The notes below the pieces were generated by a model. The model searched no databases and was not told the DNA's origin. It saw only the letters and a list, made by a program, of their open reading frames with translations. Positions 50,766 to 62,327 of a DNA stretch of 64,000 nt are shown here, one piece after another. A program made the translations under genes and the position numbers. Origin of the DNA: Pseudomonas wenzhouensis (GTDB lineage Bacteria; Pseudomonadota; Gammaproteobacteria; Pseudomonadales; Pseudomonadaceae); contig NZ_CP072610.1 of NCBI RefSeq assembly GCF_021029445.1, positions 62,001-126,000 on the forward strand, in the 5' to 3' direction. Every line of letters starts with the position of its first letter. Position 1 is the stretch's first letter.

Positions 50766-50840
50766 CGTAGGAGCGGCGCCCCGCCGCAAACCGGGGCGAT
50801 GCGCAATTGAATAGCTTCGCCCCGGGGCGGGGCTCCTACG
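50766..50840. repeat. GTAGGAGC-type inverted repeat
   Basis: CGTAGGAGC ... GCCCCG and CGGGGC ... GCTCCTACG are inverted arms around a 25-base centre just after the CdsA-like gene; same family as the half-copy at 25072. Confidence 0.8.
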
Positions 50841-50905
50841 AAAGGCTGCTTTGGCAGCCTTATCTGATCGGCATTAGCTCTGGCAGCACGCCTTTTACGC
50901 AAGCA

Positions 50906-51012
50906 ACAAAAAACCCGCCGAAGCGGGTTTTTAAGACCTTCCGACATCCTGTCGTTTGCCATCCTGGCGCGGTCTGTCTTCCTTGACCCGGGACATCCAG
51001 TTCCCGGTACGT
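50906..51012 (-). ncRNA. Rsm-type (RsmX/Y/Z-like) small regulatory RNA
   Basis: Read leftward from about 51012, roughly 107 nt carry six GGA motifs, most in hairpin loops: CCGGGA-ACTGGATG-TCCCGG (51007-50988), GTC-AAGGAA-GAC (50987-50976), GCCA-GGA-TGGC (50968-50958) and CGACA-GGA-TGTCG (50954-50942), then GGAAGG. It ends in a classical terminator AACCCGC-TTCG-GCGGGTT plus T run (50932-50906). This is the architecture of Gac/Rsm sRNAs that sequester the CsrA/RsmA translational repressor. No reading frame fits. Confidence 0.82.
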
Positions 51013-51086
51013 GTGTGTAGATTAGCCAGGCTTCTCAGGCCAGGGCAGAGGCCCATTGCGCCTCGCCGTGTAAGCCTTTTGCCATA
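51013..51086 (-). promoter_or_regulatory. Promoter and GacA-like upstream site of the Rsm-type sRNA
   Basis: Minus strand: -10-like TAATCT at 51024-51019. The sequence TATGGC-N6-CTTACA at 51086-51069 has one perfect half of the GacA element TGTAAG-N6-CTTACA; its centre is about 65 bases ahead of the predicted start, the spacing seen for rsm genes. The left half-site is poor. Confidence 0.6.
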
Positions 51087-51432: not shown

Positions 51433-53820
51433 TCAATCCTGCGGCAGAAGCTCCATTGAGCTGGGTGCGTCGGCAAACTCGTAGCCCATGGCCTTATAGC
51501 CAGCCTGGCGCTTGCTCCACATACGCAGTAAGGCTGGATGCCCCGAGTCGATGAAATCGATGATGCGGACATCTGCCTTATCAGCATGCTCCCGATGCAG
51601 GCGACCTGCATACTGCTGGAGGGTGCCCTTCCAGGAAACCGGCATGGCCAGCACCAAGGTATCCAGCGCAGGATGATCGAACCCCTCACCTACCAGTTTC
51701 CCAGTGGCCAGGATCACCCTGGCTGCATCGGGCGACAGCGCTTCCAGTTCACCGATTAGCGCGGCGCGCTGTTTCTTGGACAGCCGCCCGTGCAGGGTAA
51801 ACAGGCTTTCGACTCGCCCAACTAGCCTTTCCTCAATAGCACTGAGGTGATCAGTTCGCTCCGTCAGCAGCAGAATCTTTCTCCCCTGGCCAAAAGCTGC
51901 TTCGACCTCAGACACAATCTTGTCTGTCCGTTCCGCATCGCTGCACACCTGCAAGAAAACATCCTGAATACCGGCTCCTTCTGGCATGACGATAGGCCGG
52001 AACAACCACTTGGGAATTACCCTCAACTCTGCCGGGGCACTCTCAGGCCGAGAGGCGGTATGCCGAATCGGCCCGCACTGCATGAAAATAATCGGTTGTT
52101 GGCCATCGCGCCGAATGGGTGTAGCGGTCAGCCCCAGCACATATCTCGCAGGGGCAGCCTTGAGAAGGGCCTCAAAGGAGAACGCCGACAGGTGATGGCA
52201 TTCATCCACGATGATTTGCCCGTAGTTCTTTACCTGTTCGCTGACCTCACCTTGCCGCGATAGCGACTGCATAACCGCCACATCGATGATGCCGGTCGGC
52301 TTGGCCTTACCTCCACCGATGCTGCCAACAGTCTTCTTGTCTGCCCCCAGAAACGCCTGCAACCGTTCCTTCCACTGCTGGAGCAGTTCCGTTCGGTGAA
52401 CCAGCACCAGCGTGTTCACGCCACGCTGCGCAATCAGGGCAGCAGCAGTGACCGTTTTGCCGAATGCAGTCGGAGCGTAGAGGATGCCGGTGTCGTGCCC
52501 CAGCATACCCGCCAGTGCAGCCTCCTGATCCGAACGAAGTTTTCCCACAAAGCGGACATCGATGGGCTCCCCAGCGAAGCGCTCATCATGCAGCACCAGC
52601 TCTACCTTGTTTTCGCCCAACAGTGCCCGGACGTCATCCAGGCATCCTCGCGGCAGGGCAATGTGCTGCGGATAGTTTTCGGCACAGCCGATGATCCGGG
52701 GCTTATTCCATACCGGCAGCCGCATGGCTTGAGCCTTATAGAATTCGGGATTCTGAAATGCCGCCAGCCGAATGAGCTTGTTGACCAATGGCTGGGGTAG
52801 TTCGGACTTGCTGAAATAGATCTGGTTGGCCAGGGTCACGCTTACCGACGCTGGTAACGAAAAGGTCAGTTTCTGAGTCTTTTCCGACGTGCGCTGCCAG
52901 GGCTTCGCGCTTTCATCATCTGTTAGGTCAGCGACATCCAACGGATGGCGACCGCCGCTAGCCCGCAGAGTGGCCGGTGAAATGTCCCTCACCTGCATGG
53001 GTTGGACACTGGCCAGAAATGCCCACTGATCGGGATAGGGCATCAGCGTCTCATCGACAAAAACACTGCCACCTTGTGCTCGGGCCCTCTTCTGCAAGGG
53101 CAACGCAATCAAATTTCCGAAACCACCCTTGGGCATGCTGTCCTGGTTTGGAAACAGCCGGTCGTAAGAGCCCAGCGTCAGCTGCCGGGTACGTTCACAG
53201 GTATGGCTGATGATCGCGGAGCCAAGCAGACGTGCCTCAGCCGCCGGGACGCTGTGCTCGAAGAATATCCAGGCATGAGCACCGTTTCCGGAGCGAGAAA
53301 CCTCCAGCGCGACCGGCACGCCTAACTTGCGACATGACTGGGCAAACGCCGTGACATCTTCACGCCAGTCGGCTTCATCAAAGTCCACAGCCAGGAAGTA
53401 GCAGGTGTCATCCGGCAGCAGTGGGTAAACGCCGACGACAATCTCTCCGGCCAAGTGCTTGTAGAGCACCTGGTCGGTCAGCGGTAGTAACTGTCGGTAC
53501 GAGCAATCGCCACATTTAATCCGTGGCTTCTCACAAACACCTGGGCGCCATTCATTAGCGCACGCAGGTGAGTAGCCGGTCTTTCCGGTCTTGCTTTCCC
53601 AGCGCAGGGGAAAGACATCGGCACGCCCCCGGAATAGACGATTGAACAGCGCCAGCTTCTCATTGGTATCCAGAACCGGGACTAGCGGTGGCAGCGCCAC
53701 GGCCTGCTCAGGCTTTGGCCGCTCAGCCGGTAGCCGCCACTCAATGCCATGCGTTTCCAGCAATGCGATCAGACGAGCATTCTCAGCCCGCAGTTGCTCC
53801 AACAGATCGCCATCACTCAT
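51433..53820 (-). CDS. TOTE-type archaeo-eukaryotic primase / SF2 helicase
   Basis: 795-residue protein. Residues 1-60: coiled region. 84-106: four cysteines (87, 96, 103, 106) forming a likely zinc knuckle. 120-245: archaeo-eukaryotic primase (AEP) core with metal-binding D146-F-D148, SRSGNGAHAW (175-184) and YDRLFPNQD. 425-760: superfamily 2 helicase with Walker A APTAFGKT (449-456), DECHH (539-543), LTATP (564-568) and motif VI QYAGRLHR. Fits the AEP of TOTE conflict systems. No separate nuclease domain is evident. Role presumed in conflict with invading DNA; unproven. Downstream of relBE on the same strand. Confidence 0.85.
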   Translation of the reverse strand: MSDGDLLEQLRAENARLIALLETHGIEWRLPAERPKPEQAVALPPLVPVLDTNEKLALFNRLFRGRADVFPLRWESKTGKTGYSPACANEWRPGVCEKPRIKCGDCSYRQLLPLTDQVLYKHLAGEIVVGVYPLLPDDTCYFLAVDFDEADWREDVTAFAQSCRKLGVPVALEVSRSGNGAHAWIFFEHSVPAAEARLLGSAIISHTCERTRQLTLGSYDRLFPNQDSMPKGGFGNLIALPLQKRARAQGGSVFVDETLMPYPDQWAFLASVQPMQVRDISPATLRASGGRHPLDVADLTDDESAKPWQRTSEKTQKLTFSLPASVSVTLANQIYFSKSELPQPLVNKLIRLAAFQNPEFYKAQAMRLPVWNKPRIIGCAENYPQHIALPRGCLDDVRALLGENKVELVLHDERFAGEPIDVRFVGKLRSDQEAALAGMLGHDTGILYAPTAFGKTVTAAALIAQRGVNTLVLVHRTELLQQWKERLQAFLGADKKTVGSIGGGKAKPTGIIDVAVMQSLSRQGEVSEQVKNYGQIIVDECHHLSAFSFEALLKAAPARYVLGLTATPIRRDGQQPIIFMQCGPIRHTASRPESAPAELRVIPKWLFRPIVMPEGAGIQDVFLQVCSDAERTDKIVSEVEAAFGQGRKILLLTERTDHLSAIEERLVGRVESLFTLHGRLSKKQRAALIGELEALSPDAARVILATGKLVGEGFDHPALDTLVLAMPVSWKGTLQQYAGRLHREHADKADVRIIDFIDSGHPALLRMWSKRQAGYKAMGYEFADAPSSMELLPQD

Positions 53821-53858
53821 CGCATTGAAACCCGATTCTGTCTGACGCAGGCAGCTCG

Positions 53859-54146
53859 TTATTTGAGCCGCTCAGCGGCCTTGCGATAGGCCTGCTCGCG
53901 TTCACGCCGATCCACGGCCACGACAAACACCACCACCTCATGGTCGATCACCTGATACACCAGGCGATAACCGCTGCTGCGCAGTTTGATCTTGTAGCAG
54001 TCGGGAAGTGAATGAAGGCGATTTGCCTCAACACGCGGATTGACCAACACCTCCGCGAGCTTTTTCTTGAGCTGCTCCCGGACGGTATCCCCCAACTTGT
54101 GCCACTCCTTCAGCGCCCGCGCATCAAATTCGAGGCTATAGGTCAT
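53859..54146 (-). CDS. relE: RelE-family toxin
   Basis: 95-residue ribosome-dependent mRNA interferase of the RelE/ParE fold. Core: YSLEFDARALKEWHKLGDTVREQLKKKL and the basic strand pattern CYKIKLRSSGYRLVYQV...VVFVVAVDRRERE, with Arg and Tyr in the positions used for catalysis. Its start lies inside the antitoxin gene (11-base overlap), the normal antitoxin-first layout. Confidence 0.93.
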   Translation of the reverse strand: MTYSLEFDARALKEWHKLGDTVREQLKKKLAEVLVNPRVEANRLHSLPDCYKIKLRSSGYRLVYQVIDHEVVVFVVAVDRREREQAYRKAAERLK

Positions 54147-54375
54147 CCAGCGAAACCTTCACGCGCTGGGGAGCAGCAAGGCGCTCACGCACAGTGGCGA
54201 TCAGGGCCTCATCTTCCTCGGTCATCAGTACCGGACGGAAGGGCAGCTGACCGCGTTCGGCCACGTATTGCAGAGCTTGGCGCATCAGCTCAGAAGGAGT
54301 GACGCCAAGCTTTTCCAGTTCCCGGTACGCGCGGACTTTCAGCTCGTCGTCGATGCGGATATTGATCGAAGCCAT
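54136..54375 (-). CDS. relB: RelB-family antitoxin
   Basis: 79-residue ribbon-helix-helix antitoxin (ASINIRIDDELKVRAYRELEKLGVTPSELMRQAL) with an extended C-terminal toxin-binding tail. ATG at 54375 follows GGAGGCAG. It should autorepress its promoter, in the AT-rich 54376-54500. Pair with RelE stabilises the accessory region. Confidence 0.92.
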   Translation of the reverse strand: MASINIRIDDELKVRAYRELEKLGVTPSELMRQALQYVAERGQLPFRPVLMTEEDEALIATVRERLAAPQRVKVSLDDL

Positions 54376-54508
54376 GGGGACTGCCTCCATGTAAAGACAT
54401 TCGTCATTACGATGGCATTCTTTCGCTTATTTGGCAACCGCTCGTTCACGATTGACGGGCATGGGTTGATGCCTGCCGCCGCGTTGCTCAGGAATTTATT
54501 AACAATCC

Positions 54509-54556
54509 TGTTAAGAAAATCTCGACCCACTCTGCCGACTAAATTTGACCCAGGGC
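54509..54556 (+). mobile_element. Solo IS21-like terminal repeat
   Basis: TGTTAAGAAAATCTCGACCCA followed by CTCTGCCGACTAAATTTGACCCAGGG matches the left end of the intact IS21 element at 55238 (TGTTGGCGCTGATGGAAAATTGACCCACCCTGCCGATTGAAATTTGACCCAGGG) in order and spacing, in the same orientation, but no transposase belongs to it. It is a leftover end or half of a larger unit reaching to 57842. Confidence 0.72.
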
Positions 54557-54612
54557 ATACAGGGATCCAGCAGGGCTGCAAGCTGGCAGAGGTAGGCTCC
54601 ACCTGTGCGATA

Positions 54613-54644
54613 GGTCAACAGGCCCATTGATGAGCCTGTTGACC
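54613..54644 (-). terminator. Hairpin terminator after the small Pro/Gly-rich gene
   Basis: GGTCAACAGGC and GCCTGTTGACC are perfect inverted 11-base arms, nine bases beyond the stop codon at 54653. No long T tract on the minus strand. Confidence 0.65.
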
Positions 54645-54652
54645 TTATTCAA

Positions 54653-54790
54653 TTACTTCGACTTCGCTGGTGGGTAATTACCGCGACCACCTCCCGATTT
54701 GTTCCCCGTGGTGCTGGGCAAATTGGGGACGACCGGGCGAGGAGCTGGTTTGGGTGTTTGGCCGGAAGGGCTTTTAGGCTGCTTACTCAT
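54653..54790 (-). CDS. Small Pro/Gly-rich hypothetical protein (45 residues)
   Basis: Too short for routine gene calling. GGAGGTGGAT stands directly before the ATG at 54790, an optimal ribosome binding site. The product begins MSKQPKSPSGQTPKPAPRP and ends in GGGRGNYPPAKSK before TAA: rich in Pro, Gly, Lys and Ser, no hydrophobic segment, strongly basic, probably unstructured. It follows the glycine-rich-domain-like gene by 14 bases and precedes a terminator, so the two form an operon. Function unknown. Confidence 0.72.
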   Translation of the reverse strand: MSKQPKSPSGQTPKPAPRPVVPNLPSTTGNKSGGGRGNYPPAKSK

Positions 54791-54804
54791 ATCCACCTCC
54801 AGAT

Positions 54805-55206
54805 TTAATAGGCCGCTACATCGTCTTTGCATGCACCCTCAACACGGCATGCACACTTAGACTCGACGTGACACGCGTGATCCTTGCAGCGCATGGCTTG
54901 AGCTTCACTGCCACCGCCCGGATACGCACCAAAGTGCTTCTCATACAGCGCCACGGTTTGGGTAAAGGCGCTTTTCAACTCCTGATAGTCGTCCTTGCCG
55001 TAGATGCCGAAGTAGGGGTAGTGGTCAATGAAGCGACCGAAGACCTGCTGGCAATCCTCACGATAAGCGCGGGTATCCAGAATATGGGCGTGCCAAATGG
55101 CATCCACCATCTTGCTAGGCACCAAGGCTACCGAGGGATAAAAGCACTTCAGAGTCAGAAAGCGGCGGTACTCCTGCTCAGCAAAGTCCCACTCCGCCGC
55201 CGACAT
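54805..55206 (-). CDS. Glycine-rich-domain-like protein with Cys-rich tail, 5' end affected by IS21
   Basis: 133 residues from the ATG at 55206 (GGAAGCGGAA upstream). Core EYRRFLTLKCFYPSVALVPSKMVDAIWHAHILDTRAYREDC, then VFGRFIDHYPYFG, fits the glycine-rich-domain-like (GRDP-like) family, whose function is unknown; WHxHILDT is its hallmark. The last 30 residues hold five cysteines (CKDHAC...CAC...C). The frame is open 37 codons upstream but codons 1-27 are the end of the IS, so the original 5' part may have been lost. Operon with the 45-residue gene. Confidence 0.7.
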   Translation of the reverse strand: MSAAEWDFAEQEYRRFLTLKCFYPSVALVPSKMVDAIWHAHILDTRAYREDCQQVFGRFIDHYPYFGIYGKDDYQELKSAFTQTVALYEKHFGAYPGGGSEAQAMRCKDHACHVESKCACRVEGACKDDVAAY

Positions 55207-55431
55207 TTCCGCTTCCGAAGACTCGGTGTACTTATGCTGTTGGCGCTGATGGAAAATTGACCCACCCTGCCGATTGAAATTTGACCCAGGGCGGATTGCT
55301 GATTTTGTTACCAGCAACTGTGGATAAGTCTACCAGCGCAGCTGCTTTTGAACCCACTCCCTCGCTGTCCCAGTTCAGCTGTTGAAGACCTGCGACATGC
55401 AGCCATGCAGCAGGCCGTCGTCACCATGACA

Positions 55432-56235
55432 TCAGAACGGCTCATCGTCCTCCGGTTCCTGGCCGCCCTTACGCTTTCGCTCCCGTGATTTGATCTTGGC
55501 CTGGGCCGCCAAGCTACTGTGTTGCAGGCGATAGGACTCGTTACCGGTTTCGACGATGTGGCAGTGGTGGGTCAGCCGATCCAGCAGGGCGGTGGTCATC
55601 TTGGCGTCGCCGAACACGCTCGACCATTCGGCGAAGCTCAGGTTGGTGGTGATCACCACGCTGGTGTGCTCGTACAGTTTGGACAGCAGGTGAAATAGCA
55701 GCGCGCCACCGGCCTGACTGAAGGGCAGATACCCCAGCTCGTCGAGGATGACCAGATCCATGCGCAGCAGTGCCTGGGCGATCCGCCCGGCTTTGCCGTC
55801 GTGTTTTTCGCGCTCCAGCAGATTGACCAGATCGACCGTGGAGTAGAAGCGCACGCGCTTGCCATGCCGGGTGATGCCGGACACGGCCAGCGCGGTGGCT
55901 AGGTGGGTTTTACCGGTGCCTGGCCCACCGATCAGCACCACGTTCTGCGCGGTGTCGGTAAAGGCCAGGCTGGCCAGCTCGCTGATCAGGCGTGCGTCGG
56001 CGCTGGAGGCGCTGAAGTCGAAGCCGGCCAGATCGCGGTGCATCGGCAGCTTGGCCATGTTCATCTGGTGGCTCACCGAGCGCATGGCGCGATCTGTGTG
56101 CTCTTGTTCCAGCAGGTGTTCGAGCAGCCACTTGGACGAGGCTGTGTTCGACTCACCCTGTGCAGTTAACTCCGCCCAGGCCGTGGCCATGCCGTGCAGG
56201 CGCAGTTCCTTGAGTTCCGCCATCAAATCACGCAT
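55432..56235 (-). CDS. istB: IS21 helper ATPase IstB
   Basis: 267-residue AAA+ ATPase that activates and directs the IstA transposase. Walker [12 protein letters not shown], Walker [13 protein letters not shown], and the IstB-like [20 protein letters not shown] sensor region. The ATG at 56235 follows AGGAGG at seven bases and overlaps the istA stop by eight bases; longer starts are not needed. Intact. Confidence 0.95.
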
Positions 56236-57727
56236 GACCGACCTCCTCGGCCTGGCCACGCAGGCGGTCGTAGCGCGCCGTGTTAGCGACGGGGGCTTCC
56301 TTGAGCGACAAGTGGGTTTCGACGCTGGGTGGTGGTTCGGATGCTGTCAGCCGTGCCACGACATTGAGGATGTGTTCGGCGCTCAGGCTGCCGCTCTCCA
56401 GTACCAGCTCAACGGCTACCAGCACGGCATCGAGTCCGGCGACCGGTACGGCAGCCAGGACTTGCGCCATTATCCGGTCACCGCCGGCATGACGCCCCAG
56501 GCCGTGCTTAAGCTGACGCAGCGGCACCGGCAGATCAGCAAAGGGCGCGCCGTTGCGCAGCGCACCGGGCTTGCGTTCGATCAGCGGGAGGTAGTGCTGC
56601 CAGTCATAGCTGACCTGGTCGCGATCCAGCAAGCGGACATGGCTGGCGATCAGCGCGTCGTCAGCCACCACCTCGATTCGCGTCGGATACAAACGGCTGC
56701 TGACCCACTTACCCGCGTACTCACATGGCACCGAGTAGCGGTTGCGCCCGACGCTGACCAGGCAGGTGCTGGAGACCCGCGCAGGCCGCTCGACGTAACC
56801 GTCGAATGGCGCTGGCACAGGCATCAGTTCAGCGCGCTCCAACTCCAGCACTTCGGCTACACTCAGCCCGCTGTATTGAGGGTGCGTCAGCTCGTTCCAA
56901 AGCGCGCGGCAGCGCTGGCCCAGCCAGGCATTGAGTTCCTCGAAGGAGTGAAACTGGCAGTCGTGGGCGTCTAGCCAGATACGCCTGCGGCTGTCTTGCA
57001 CGTTCTTTTCAACGATGCCCTTTTCCCAACCAGCGGCGACGTTGCAGAAGTCCGGATCGAACAGGTAATGCGCGCACATCACCGCAAAGCGTGCATTCAC
57101 CGCCCGGCCTTTGCCCTTATTGACCTTGTCGACGGCGGTCTTCATGTTGTCGTAGATGCCCCGGCGCGGCACGCCGCCCAAGGCGCCGAACGAGCGTGTA
57201 TGGGCGTCAAATAACATCTCATGGCCCTGGCTCGGATACGCCACAAGCCAGAACGCACGGCTGGCACACAGCTTCAGATGTGCCACCTGCATACGCCGGT
57301 AAATGCCGCCGACCAGCAAGCCTTCCTCGCTCCAGTCAAACTGAAACGCCTCGCCAAGAGCAAAGGTCAGCGGCACAAAGGCCTGCGACGCCTTGCCCTG
57401 TCCCCCTCGCCAGGCACGGATAAACGCGGTGAGCTGGCTGTAGCCACCGTCATAACCATCGGCTTTGATTTGCGCCAACAGCGCCTTGGCACTGCGCCGC
57501 TGTTGCTTGGGGCGCAGCGAATCGGCTTTTAGCGCCTGCTCTAGCGTGGCGTGAAAAGGGCTGAGTTTGTTAAAGATCGCGCGGCGTTGGTACACCGGCT
57601 GCTTGGCCTCAGGTGCTCTGACCCACTTGCGAATCGTGTTGCGCGCCAGCCCGGTGCGCTTGGCTATCTCATGCAGCGACAGCTTGTCGCGGAAATACAT
57701 CCGCCGAATTTTGCCCATCATTTCCAT
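56228..57727 (-). CDS. istA: IS21 transposase IstA
   Basis: 499-residue DDE transposase. N-terminal HTH ([25 protein letters not shown]), integrase-like core with the catalytic acids in [22 protein letters not shown] and [15 protein letters not shown], and a C-terminal beta-barrel/Mu-type end. ATG at 57727 chosen (AGGGTG upstream); a GTG three codons earlier is possible. No frameshift or stop, so the element may be active. Confidence 0.95.
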
Positions 57728-57933
57728 ACTGATCACCCTGTGTTCTCCTGCTCAAAAATTGAGCAGAAGCAGTTGAACACCTGGGTCAGTTTTCAGTCGG
57801 CAGAACAGCCTCTACTGGGTCAGTTTTCGGTCAGCGGCAACACCATGGACTCCATCTTCGCCGAGAAAGACCTCGCCGAAGTGGCCATTTCCAAGCTTAC
57901 GCCCGACATGAAGATCTGGGACTACCCCAACCA

Positions 57934-58799: not shown

Positions 58800-62327
<3,528 letters not shown>

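What the first reader, a model, noticed from the sequence alone, without database searches (positions are those of the whole stretch)
50906..51086. Unannotated Rsm-type sRNA at the border of an accessory region
The minus strand shows six GGA motifs in about 75 nt, four in short hairpin loops (one stem is CGACA-GGA-TGTCG, another GCCA-GGA-TGGC), ending in a strong terminator. A -10 box and a half-perfect GacA site (CTTACA with correct N6 spacing) sit at the right distance. That is the design of RsmX/Y/Z, which titrate RsmA/CsrA. It is next to a phospholipid cassette and an accessory region, not near rpoS (rsmZ) or other usual places, so it may be an extra family member.
Basis: partly seen in the sequence, partly recalled or inferred. 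Interest (0 to 1): 0.72.

Follow-up and report, generated by a model that had tools for sequence, protein, structure and literature searches.

The report
Ordinary rsmX regulatory RNA beside gyrB
This is a second copy of the known small RNA RsmX, which soaks up the regulator protein RsmA/CsrA in Pseudomonas; it looks like a normal, conserved gene next to the DNA gyrase gene, not a new kind of RNA.

Summary
Window 50908-51012 (minus strand) matches Rfam rsmX (RF02144) at 72 bits, cut-off 56, the only Rfam hit above cut-off in the window. It has six GGA motifs, four in hairpin loops, a terminator, a -10-like box and a GacA-type site. That site is not "half-perfect": it is a full rsmX-type activating sequence, 15 of 18 bases identical to the one printed for P. 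brassicacearum.

The genome has a second rsmX (83.1 bits), one rsmY, one rsmZ, GacA, and one CsrA found by Pfam. The gene is not an accessory extra. Orthologues occur in 23 of 398 Pseudomonas genomes searched and in 28 named contigs, an overlapping set, beside gyrB and/or cdsA. In 9 of the 23 it is the only rsmX found. The TOTE protein, toxin and IS21 lie between gyrB and rsmX, and look like a later insertion.

Several RsmX copies in P. mendocina ymp are already in print (Moll 2010, not held, as cited by PMC4950607). Transcription, GacA dependence and RsmA binding are inferred. Verdict: a real, ordinary member of a known family.

The parts
50908..51012 (-). rsmX sRNA (gyrB-linked copy), about 105 nt
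   Evidence: Rfam RF02144, 72 bits, cut-off 56, E 2.7e-11 for the whole window, model positions 1-114 of 114
51069..51086 (-). rsmX-type GacA upstream activating sequence TATGGCAAAAGGCTTACA
   Evidence: 15 of 18 identical to the UAS printed for P. brassicacearum rsmX; exact CTTACA half in 22 of 23 orthologues; similar site before the other rsmX of the genome
51019..51024 (-). -10-like box TAATCT; a box of this kind starts 44 nt after the UAS in all 23 orthologues
50988..51007 (-). hairpin 1, loop GGA at 50996-50998
   Evidence: fold; a GGA in this region in 23 of 23 orthologues
50976..50987 (-). hairpin 2 (GTC-AAGGAA-GAC), loop GGA at 50980-50982
   Evidence: fold; one pair is G-C in 23 and A-U in 23 of 49 sequences; GGA kept in 23 of 23 orthologues
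50958..50968 (-). hairpin 3 (GCCA-GGA-TGGC), loop GGA at 50962-50964
   Evidence: fold; kept in 23 of 23 orthologues
50942..50954 (-). hairpin 4 (CGACA-GGA-TGTCG), loop GGA at 50947-50949
   Evidence: fold; kept in 23 of 23 orthologues
50909..50932 (-). intrinsic terminator, 10 pairs, tetraloop
49817..50749 (+). cdsA-like cytidylyltransferase gene, neighbour beyond the terminator of rsmX, convergent with it
   Evidence: PF01148; neighbour in orthologous loci
58800..61283 (-). gyrB, upstream neighbour of rsmX in relatives, here 7.7 kb from the UAS
   Evidence: within 260 nt of the rsmX core in 12 of 28 named contigs
51433..57736 (-). accessory DNA: TOTE primase-helicase, ParE/RelE toxin, GRDP-like protein, IS21 istB and istA
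   Evidence: no room for it in relatives where gyrB is within 260 nt

Best explanation
It is an rsmX gene. Phosphorylated GacA binds the 18-bp site at 51069-51086 and turns on leftward transcription from about 51012. A roughly 105-nt RNA is made and ends at the terminator near 50908. Its four loop GGAs bind dimers of the RsmA/CsrA protein and draw them off target mRNAs, relieving translational repression together with a second RsmX, RsmY and RsmZ. Shown here: family match, predicted structure, conserved site and spacing, conserved neighbours, presence of GacA and CsrA genes. Inferred from the family: transcription, GacA control, RsmA binding and the effect on translation.
For: Rfam rsmX 72 bits over the whole model. 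In 14 control genomes no rsmX hit over the cut-off, though 7 gave weak hits at E <= 1. All 23 orthologues keep the four GGA positions and a -10-like box exactly 44 nt from the UAS. UAS 15 of 18 identical to the one used to find P. brassicacearum rsmX-2, whose GacA dependence was measured there (passages). GacA matches NF007018 above its cut-off (314.5 bits, cut-off 280). One CsrA by Pfam.
Against: No expression data. Covariation within these sequences is thin: 1 of 25 pairs changes on both sides (401 of 500 shuffles do as well on that count, 500 of 500 on further pair types), hairpin 1 was left out because it could not be aligned between copy types, and pairs 48-87 and 69-83 do not form in the gyrB-linked copies. 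The score (72) is below those of many other pseudomonads (up to 125.7). A near-perfect GacA palindrome also occurs at a place with no known rsm gene (C1:1111993, 1 mismatch), so such sites alone prove little.
Confidence: 0.95

Rival explanations
1. A decayed or silent duplicate rsmX, kept by chance beside gyrB and doing nothing now that inserted DNA separates it from its old neighbour.
For: The lower-scoring of the two copies in this genome (72 against 83.1); the DNA upstream of the UAS differs from that of relatives.
Against: UAS, -10-like box, four loop GGAs and terminator are intact here and in relatives, while the sequence upstream of the UAS is not conserved; 9 of 23 genomes have only this copy.
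Confidence: 0.03
2. A GGA-rich 3' end or read-through product of the upstream gene rather than a free-standing sRNA gene.
For: In three relatives the UAS starts a few bases after the gyrB stop codon, and gyrB and rsmX run the same way (L057, L061, L063).
Against: It has its own conserved UAS and -10-like box at fixed spacing and its own terminator; here the upstream TOTE gene ends about 350 bp before the UAS.
Confidence: 0.01
3. A Gac-independent RsmA sponge of the RsmV or RsmW kind.
For: Those also sequester RsmA and are described as Gac-independent (passage of PMC7366521).
Against: Full match to the rsmX model and an rsmX-type GacA site.
Confidence: 0.01

Closest known systems
RsmX (Rfam RF02144) of Pseudomonas
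   Same: Full-length covariance match above the curated cut-off, same hairpin order, rsmX-type UAS, same kind of terminator
   Different: Shorter than the model (105 against 114 positions); two helix pairs present in most or many of the other copies do not form; sits between gyrB and cdsA
RsmX-1/RsmX-2 of P. brassicacearum NFM421 (PMC7911923, passages and section 3.1 read)
   Same: More than one rsmX; similar UAS (15 of 18)
   Different: There the copies are in tandem; here they are 1.3 Mb apart and lie on well-separated branches of the tree
Multiple RsmX of P. mendocina ymp (Moll 2010, not held; seen only as cited in PMC4950607)
   Same: P. mendocina, more than one RsmX
   Different: I could not read which loci were listed, so identity with this locus is likely but unchecked
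RsmY (RF00195) and RsmZ (RF00166)
   Same: Same GGA-titration design
   Different: This locus scores 31.2 bits for RsmY, cut-off 57, and is not among the three RsmZ hits at E <= 1; the genome has a separate copy of each over the cut-off

Membership tests
rsmX (RF02144) | Covariance score above the curated cut-off (56 bits) | tested here: met
   72 bits, positions 1-114 of 114
rsmX (RF02144) | Several GGA motifs in hairpin loops | tested here: met
   four in loops of the predicted fold, kept in 23 of 23 orthologues
rsmX (RF02144) | 18-bp GacA upstream activating sequence at promoter distance | tested here: met
   site 51069-51086, 44 nt before the -10-like box; a sequence match only, binding not tested
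rsmX (RF02144) | Compensatory changes supporting the structure | tested here: inconclusive
   95.2% of cells paired (0 of 500 shuffles reach it) but only 1 of 25 pairs changes on both sides (401 of 500 shuffles reach that); hairpin 1 left out
rsmX (RF02144) | GacA-dependent transcription | not testable with these tools
   needs RNA work; gacA is present
rsmX (RF02144) | Sequestration of RsmA/CsrA | not testable with these tools
   needs a binding assay; one CsrA by Pfam in the genome
RsmY (RF00195) | Score above cut-off (57 bits) | tested here: not met
   31.2 bits; an RsmY elsewhere at 105 bits
RsmZ/PrrB (RF00166) | Score above cut-off (44 bits) | tested here: not met
   no hit at this locus up to E 1; an RsmZ elsewhere at 106 bits

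The most novel reading that the evidence does not exclude
The gyrB-linked RsmX is an old, separate lineage of RsmX in this species group. Its place near the replication origin beside the gyrase gene links the dose of the RsmA sponge to replication or DNA supercoiling, giving it a role that the other rsmX copy lacks.
Probability: 0.07. Interest if true: 0.4.

Novelty: new member of a known kind. Interest (0 to 1): 0.17.

Why it matters
It gives the Rsm sRNA set of this genome (two RsmX, one RsmY, one RsmZ over their cut-offs, against one Pfam-detected CsrA) and shows that, among the 23 genomes with this locus, the gyrB-linked copy is the one present where the other is missing (9 of 23). That helps anyone annotating or deleting Rsm sRNAs in these strains: deleting only one rsmX with rsmY and rsmZ could leave an active copy. 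It does not change what is known about how the system works.

Tried and rejected
Third rsmX candidate at C1:588129 (30.1 bits rsmX, 22 bits RsmY): by eye the end of a coding region followed by a terminator of the same kind, and the scan around it printed no GacA palindrome within 4 mismatches; rejected. Plus-strand rsmX echo at 50786-50933 (20.6 bits): it rests on the palindromic terminator and a repeat; rejected. In one search, 392 of 398 genomes match at E <= 0.001; I take most weak ones to be other Rsm sRNAs or the shared terminator, but did not check them one by one, and the printed list of matches was cut. Only the 23 matches at E <= 1.2e-41 (own included) were taken as orthologues, the next match being 1.2e-22. 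Covariation gave little beyond Rfam's own model; of the 22 'other' RsmX used in the tree, 11 were used in that alignment. The tree of 60 copies (23 gyrB-linked, 15 second-locus, 22 others that I picked from the hits) is made of short sequences and unrooted; it separates the gyrB-linked copies from the rest (0.988) but does not say which came first.

Papers: PMC7911923 (passages and one section), PMC7366521, PMC4950607 and PMC2375449 (passages); other titles only as listings; (rsmX with pseudoalcaligenes) found none. Moll 2010 is not held. In what I saw of the results (rsmX, gyrB, sRNA; rsmX, mendocina) nothing describes the gyrB-cdsA locus, but most listed papers were not read.

Full report
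Observation. The fold is more stable than all 200 shuffles (z -3.27). In the 64-kb window, both strands, six GGA in 75 nt occurs at 3 places, and four hairpin-loop GGA within 80 nt, by a loose rule, only here.

Identity. A scan of the whole window against Rfam gives one hit above cut-off: rsmX, RF02144, 72 bits (cut-off 56), full model, 50908-51012 minus. In the own genome rsmX scores above cut-off at two places, this one and C1:1439761 (83.1 bits); 13 further hits at E <= 1 are below it. RsmZ is at C1:1634917 (106 bits) and RsmY at C1:4130118 (105 bits). At this locus RsmY scores only 31.2 bits. RsmX is common in the genus: 73 of 119 genomes have it over the cut-off.

Promoter. Against TGTAAG-N6-CTTACA it has 4 mismatches. 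But the activating sequence printed for P. brassicacearum rsmX is TATAGCGAAACGCTTACA (PMC7911923), and the site here, TATGGCAAAAGGCTTACA at 51086-51069, matches 15 of 18. The other rsmX of this genome has a site of the same type. A pattern that I wrote to cover these two sites, so that they fit with no mismatch by construction, has no other site with fewer than 3 mismatches in 4.45 Mb; nine sites have 3, and the reversed control gives 4 sites in all. RsmY has a perfect palindrome and RsmZ one with 1 mismatch about 150 bp upstream; a third palindrome with 1 mismatch, at C1:1111993, has no known rsm gene and was not followed. In all 23 orthologues the -10-like box starts 44 nt after the site; it reads TAATCT in 19, TACTCT in 3 and TAACCT in 1.

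Locus. A DNA search of 398 genomes drawn from the genus finds 23 (own included) with E <= 1.2e-41 and about 80% identity or more; the next match is 1.2e-22. With up to 1.5 kb of flank, 22 of the 23 show gyrB or cdsA in the held stretch; the one that does not (G368, L058) shows cdsA 2.9 kb away in a named contig of the same length, which I take to be the same contig (L132). A pattern scan of the named genome collection gives 28 contigs, all titled Pseudomonas (mendocina, chengduensis, toyotomiensis, alcaliphila, alcaligenes, composti, sediminis, khazarica, guguanensis, yangonensis, subflava and unnamed species); this set overlaps the 23, and the pattern would miss copies that vary in its fixed bases. 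All 28 have gyrB or cdsA in the held 8 kb: cdsA in 26, gyrB in 14, gyrB within 260 nt in 12; cdsA is within 200 nt in 15 and 1.3-2.9 kb away in 11. So the gene belongs to a conserved locus gyrB-rsmX-cdsA into which DNA has been inserted on either side in different genomes. In the window 7.7 kb separate gyrB from the UAS, and this stretch holds a TOTE primase-helicase, a ParE/RelE toxin, a GRDP-like protein, an IS21 pair and an ORF without a Pfam hit. That this DNA came later is an inference from the relatives that lack it. Upstream of gyrB lie ORFs that I read as recF, dnaN and dnaA from their order and sequence (recalled, not searched), so the locus is probably near the origin.

Copies. An rsmX search of the 23 genomes plus three others at E <= 1e-5: 14 of the 23 have a second rsmX (one of them two more), and 9 have only the gyrB-linked one. 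In all 14 the second copy lies in a place with a cytochrome b561-like gene on one side and a UvrD-like helicase gene on the other (gene names from sequence, the b561 model being matched below its cut-off). The two kinds do not look like a recent duplication: in a 60-sequence tree the gyrB-linked copies stand apart from the second-locus copies and 22 others (support 0.988, unrooted).

Mechanism. GacA is encoded (NF007018, 314.5 bits, cut-off 280) next to uvrC. One CsrA is found by Pfam; a divergent RsmN-type protein could be missed. The likely chain, GacA-P to RsmX to RsmA titration to relief of translation, is inferred from the family, not shown here. For P. brassicacearum rsmX-2, GacA dependence and rescue of a gacA mutant were measured (PMC7911923 passages).

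Limits. Only 1 of 25 tested pairs shows a change on both sides (401 of 500 shuffles reach that), hairpin 1 was excluded from that count, and two pairs seen in other RsmX do not form in the gyrB-linked type. No expression data were available.

Known or new. PMC4950607 (passage) states that multiple RsmX copies exist in P. mendocina ymp, citing Moll 2010, which is not held. The find is an ordinary member of a known family, probably already listed in that paper. What I add is the conserved gyrB-cdsA location, the full-length UAS, and the correction that the RNA is core and the DNA beside it accessory.

Noticed in passing
window 51433-53820 (-): TOTE conflict-system primase-helicase (PF22548, 337 bits) between gyrB and rsmX; relatives of about 93% identity sit just upstream of rsmX in G112 (L085), G254 (L056) and P. 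mendocina EF27 (L124), while 12 of 28 named contigs have gyrB within 260 nt, so this gap looks like an insertion hotspot.
   Followed up: partly
window 53859-54146 (-): ParE/RelE-family toxin gene directly beside the TOTE gene; same pair in G112 (L085 6579-6863). No antitoxin was looked for.
   Followed up: no
window 55432-57736 (-): IS21-family istA/istB pair; copies of about 99% protein identity lie some 4-6 kb upstream of the gyrB-linked rsmX in G063 (L088).
   Followed up: no
window 50770-50840: A long GC-rich inverted repeat (GTAGGAGC...GCTCCTAC) between cdsA and the rsmX terminator, REP-like by eye.
   Followed up: no
L050 7418-8677: A group II intron-type reverse transcriptase ORF next to the second rsmX copy (C1:1439761) in this genome (named from sequence, not searched).
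   Followed up: no
L091 (G077:C1:3724642 and 3726159): One relative carries two rsmX copies about 1.5 kb apart at the second locus, three in all.
   Followed up: no
G000:C1:1111993-1112010 (L192): A GacA-type palindrome with 1 mismatch at a place where no rsm gene was found by the three Rfam models.
   Followed up: no
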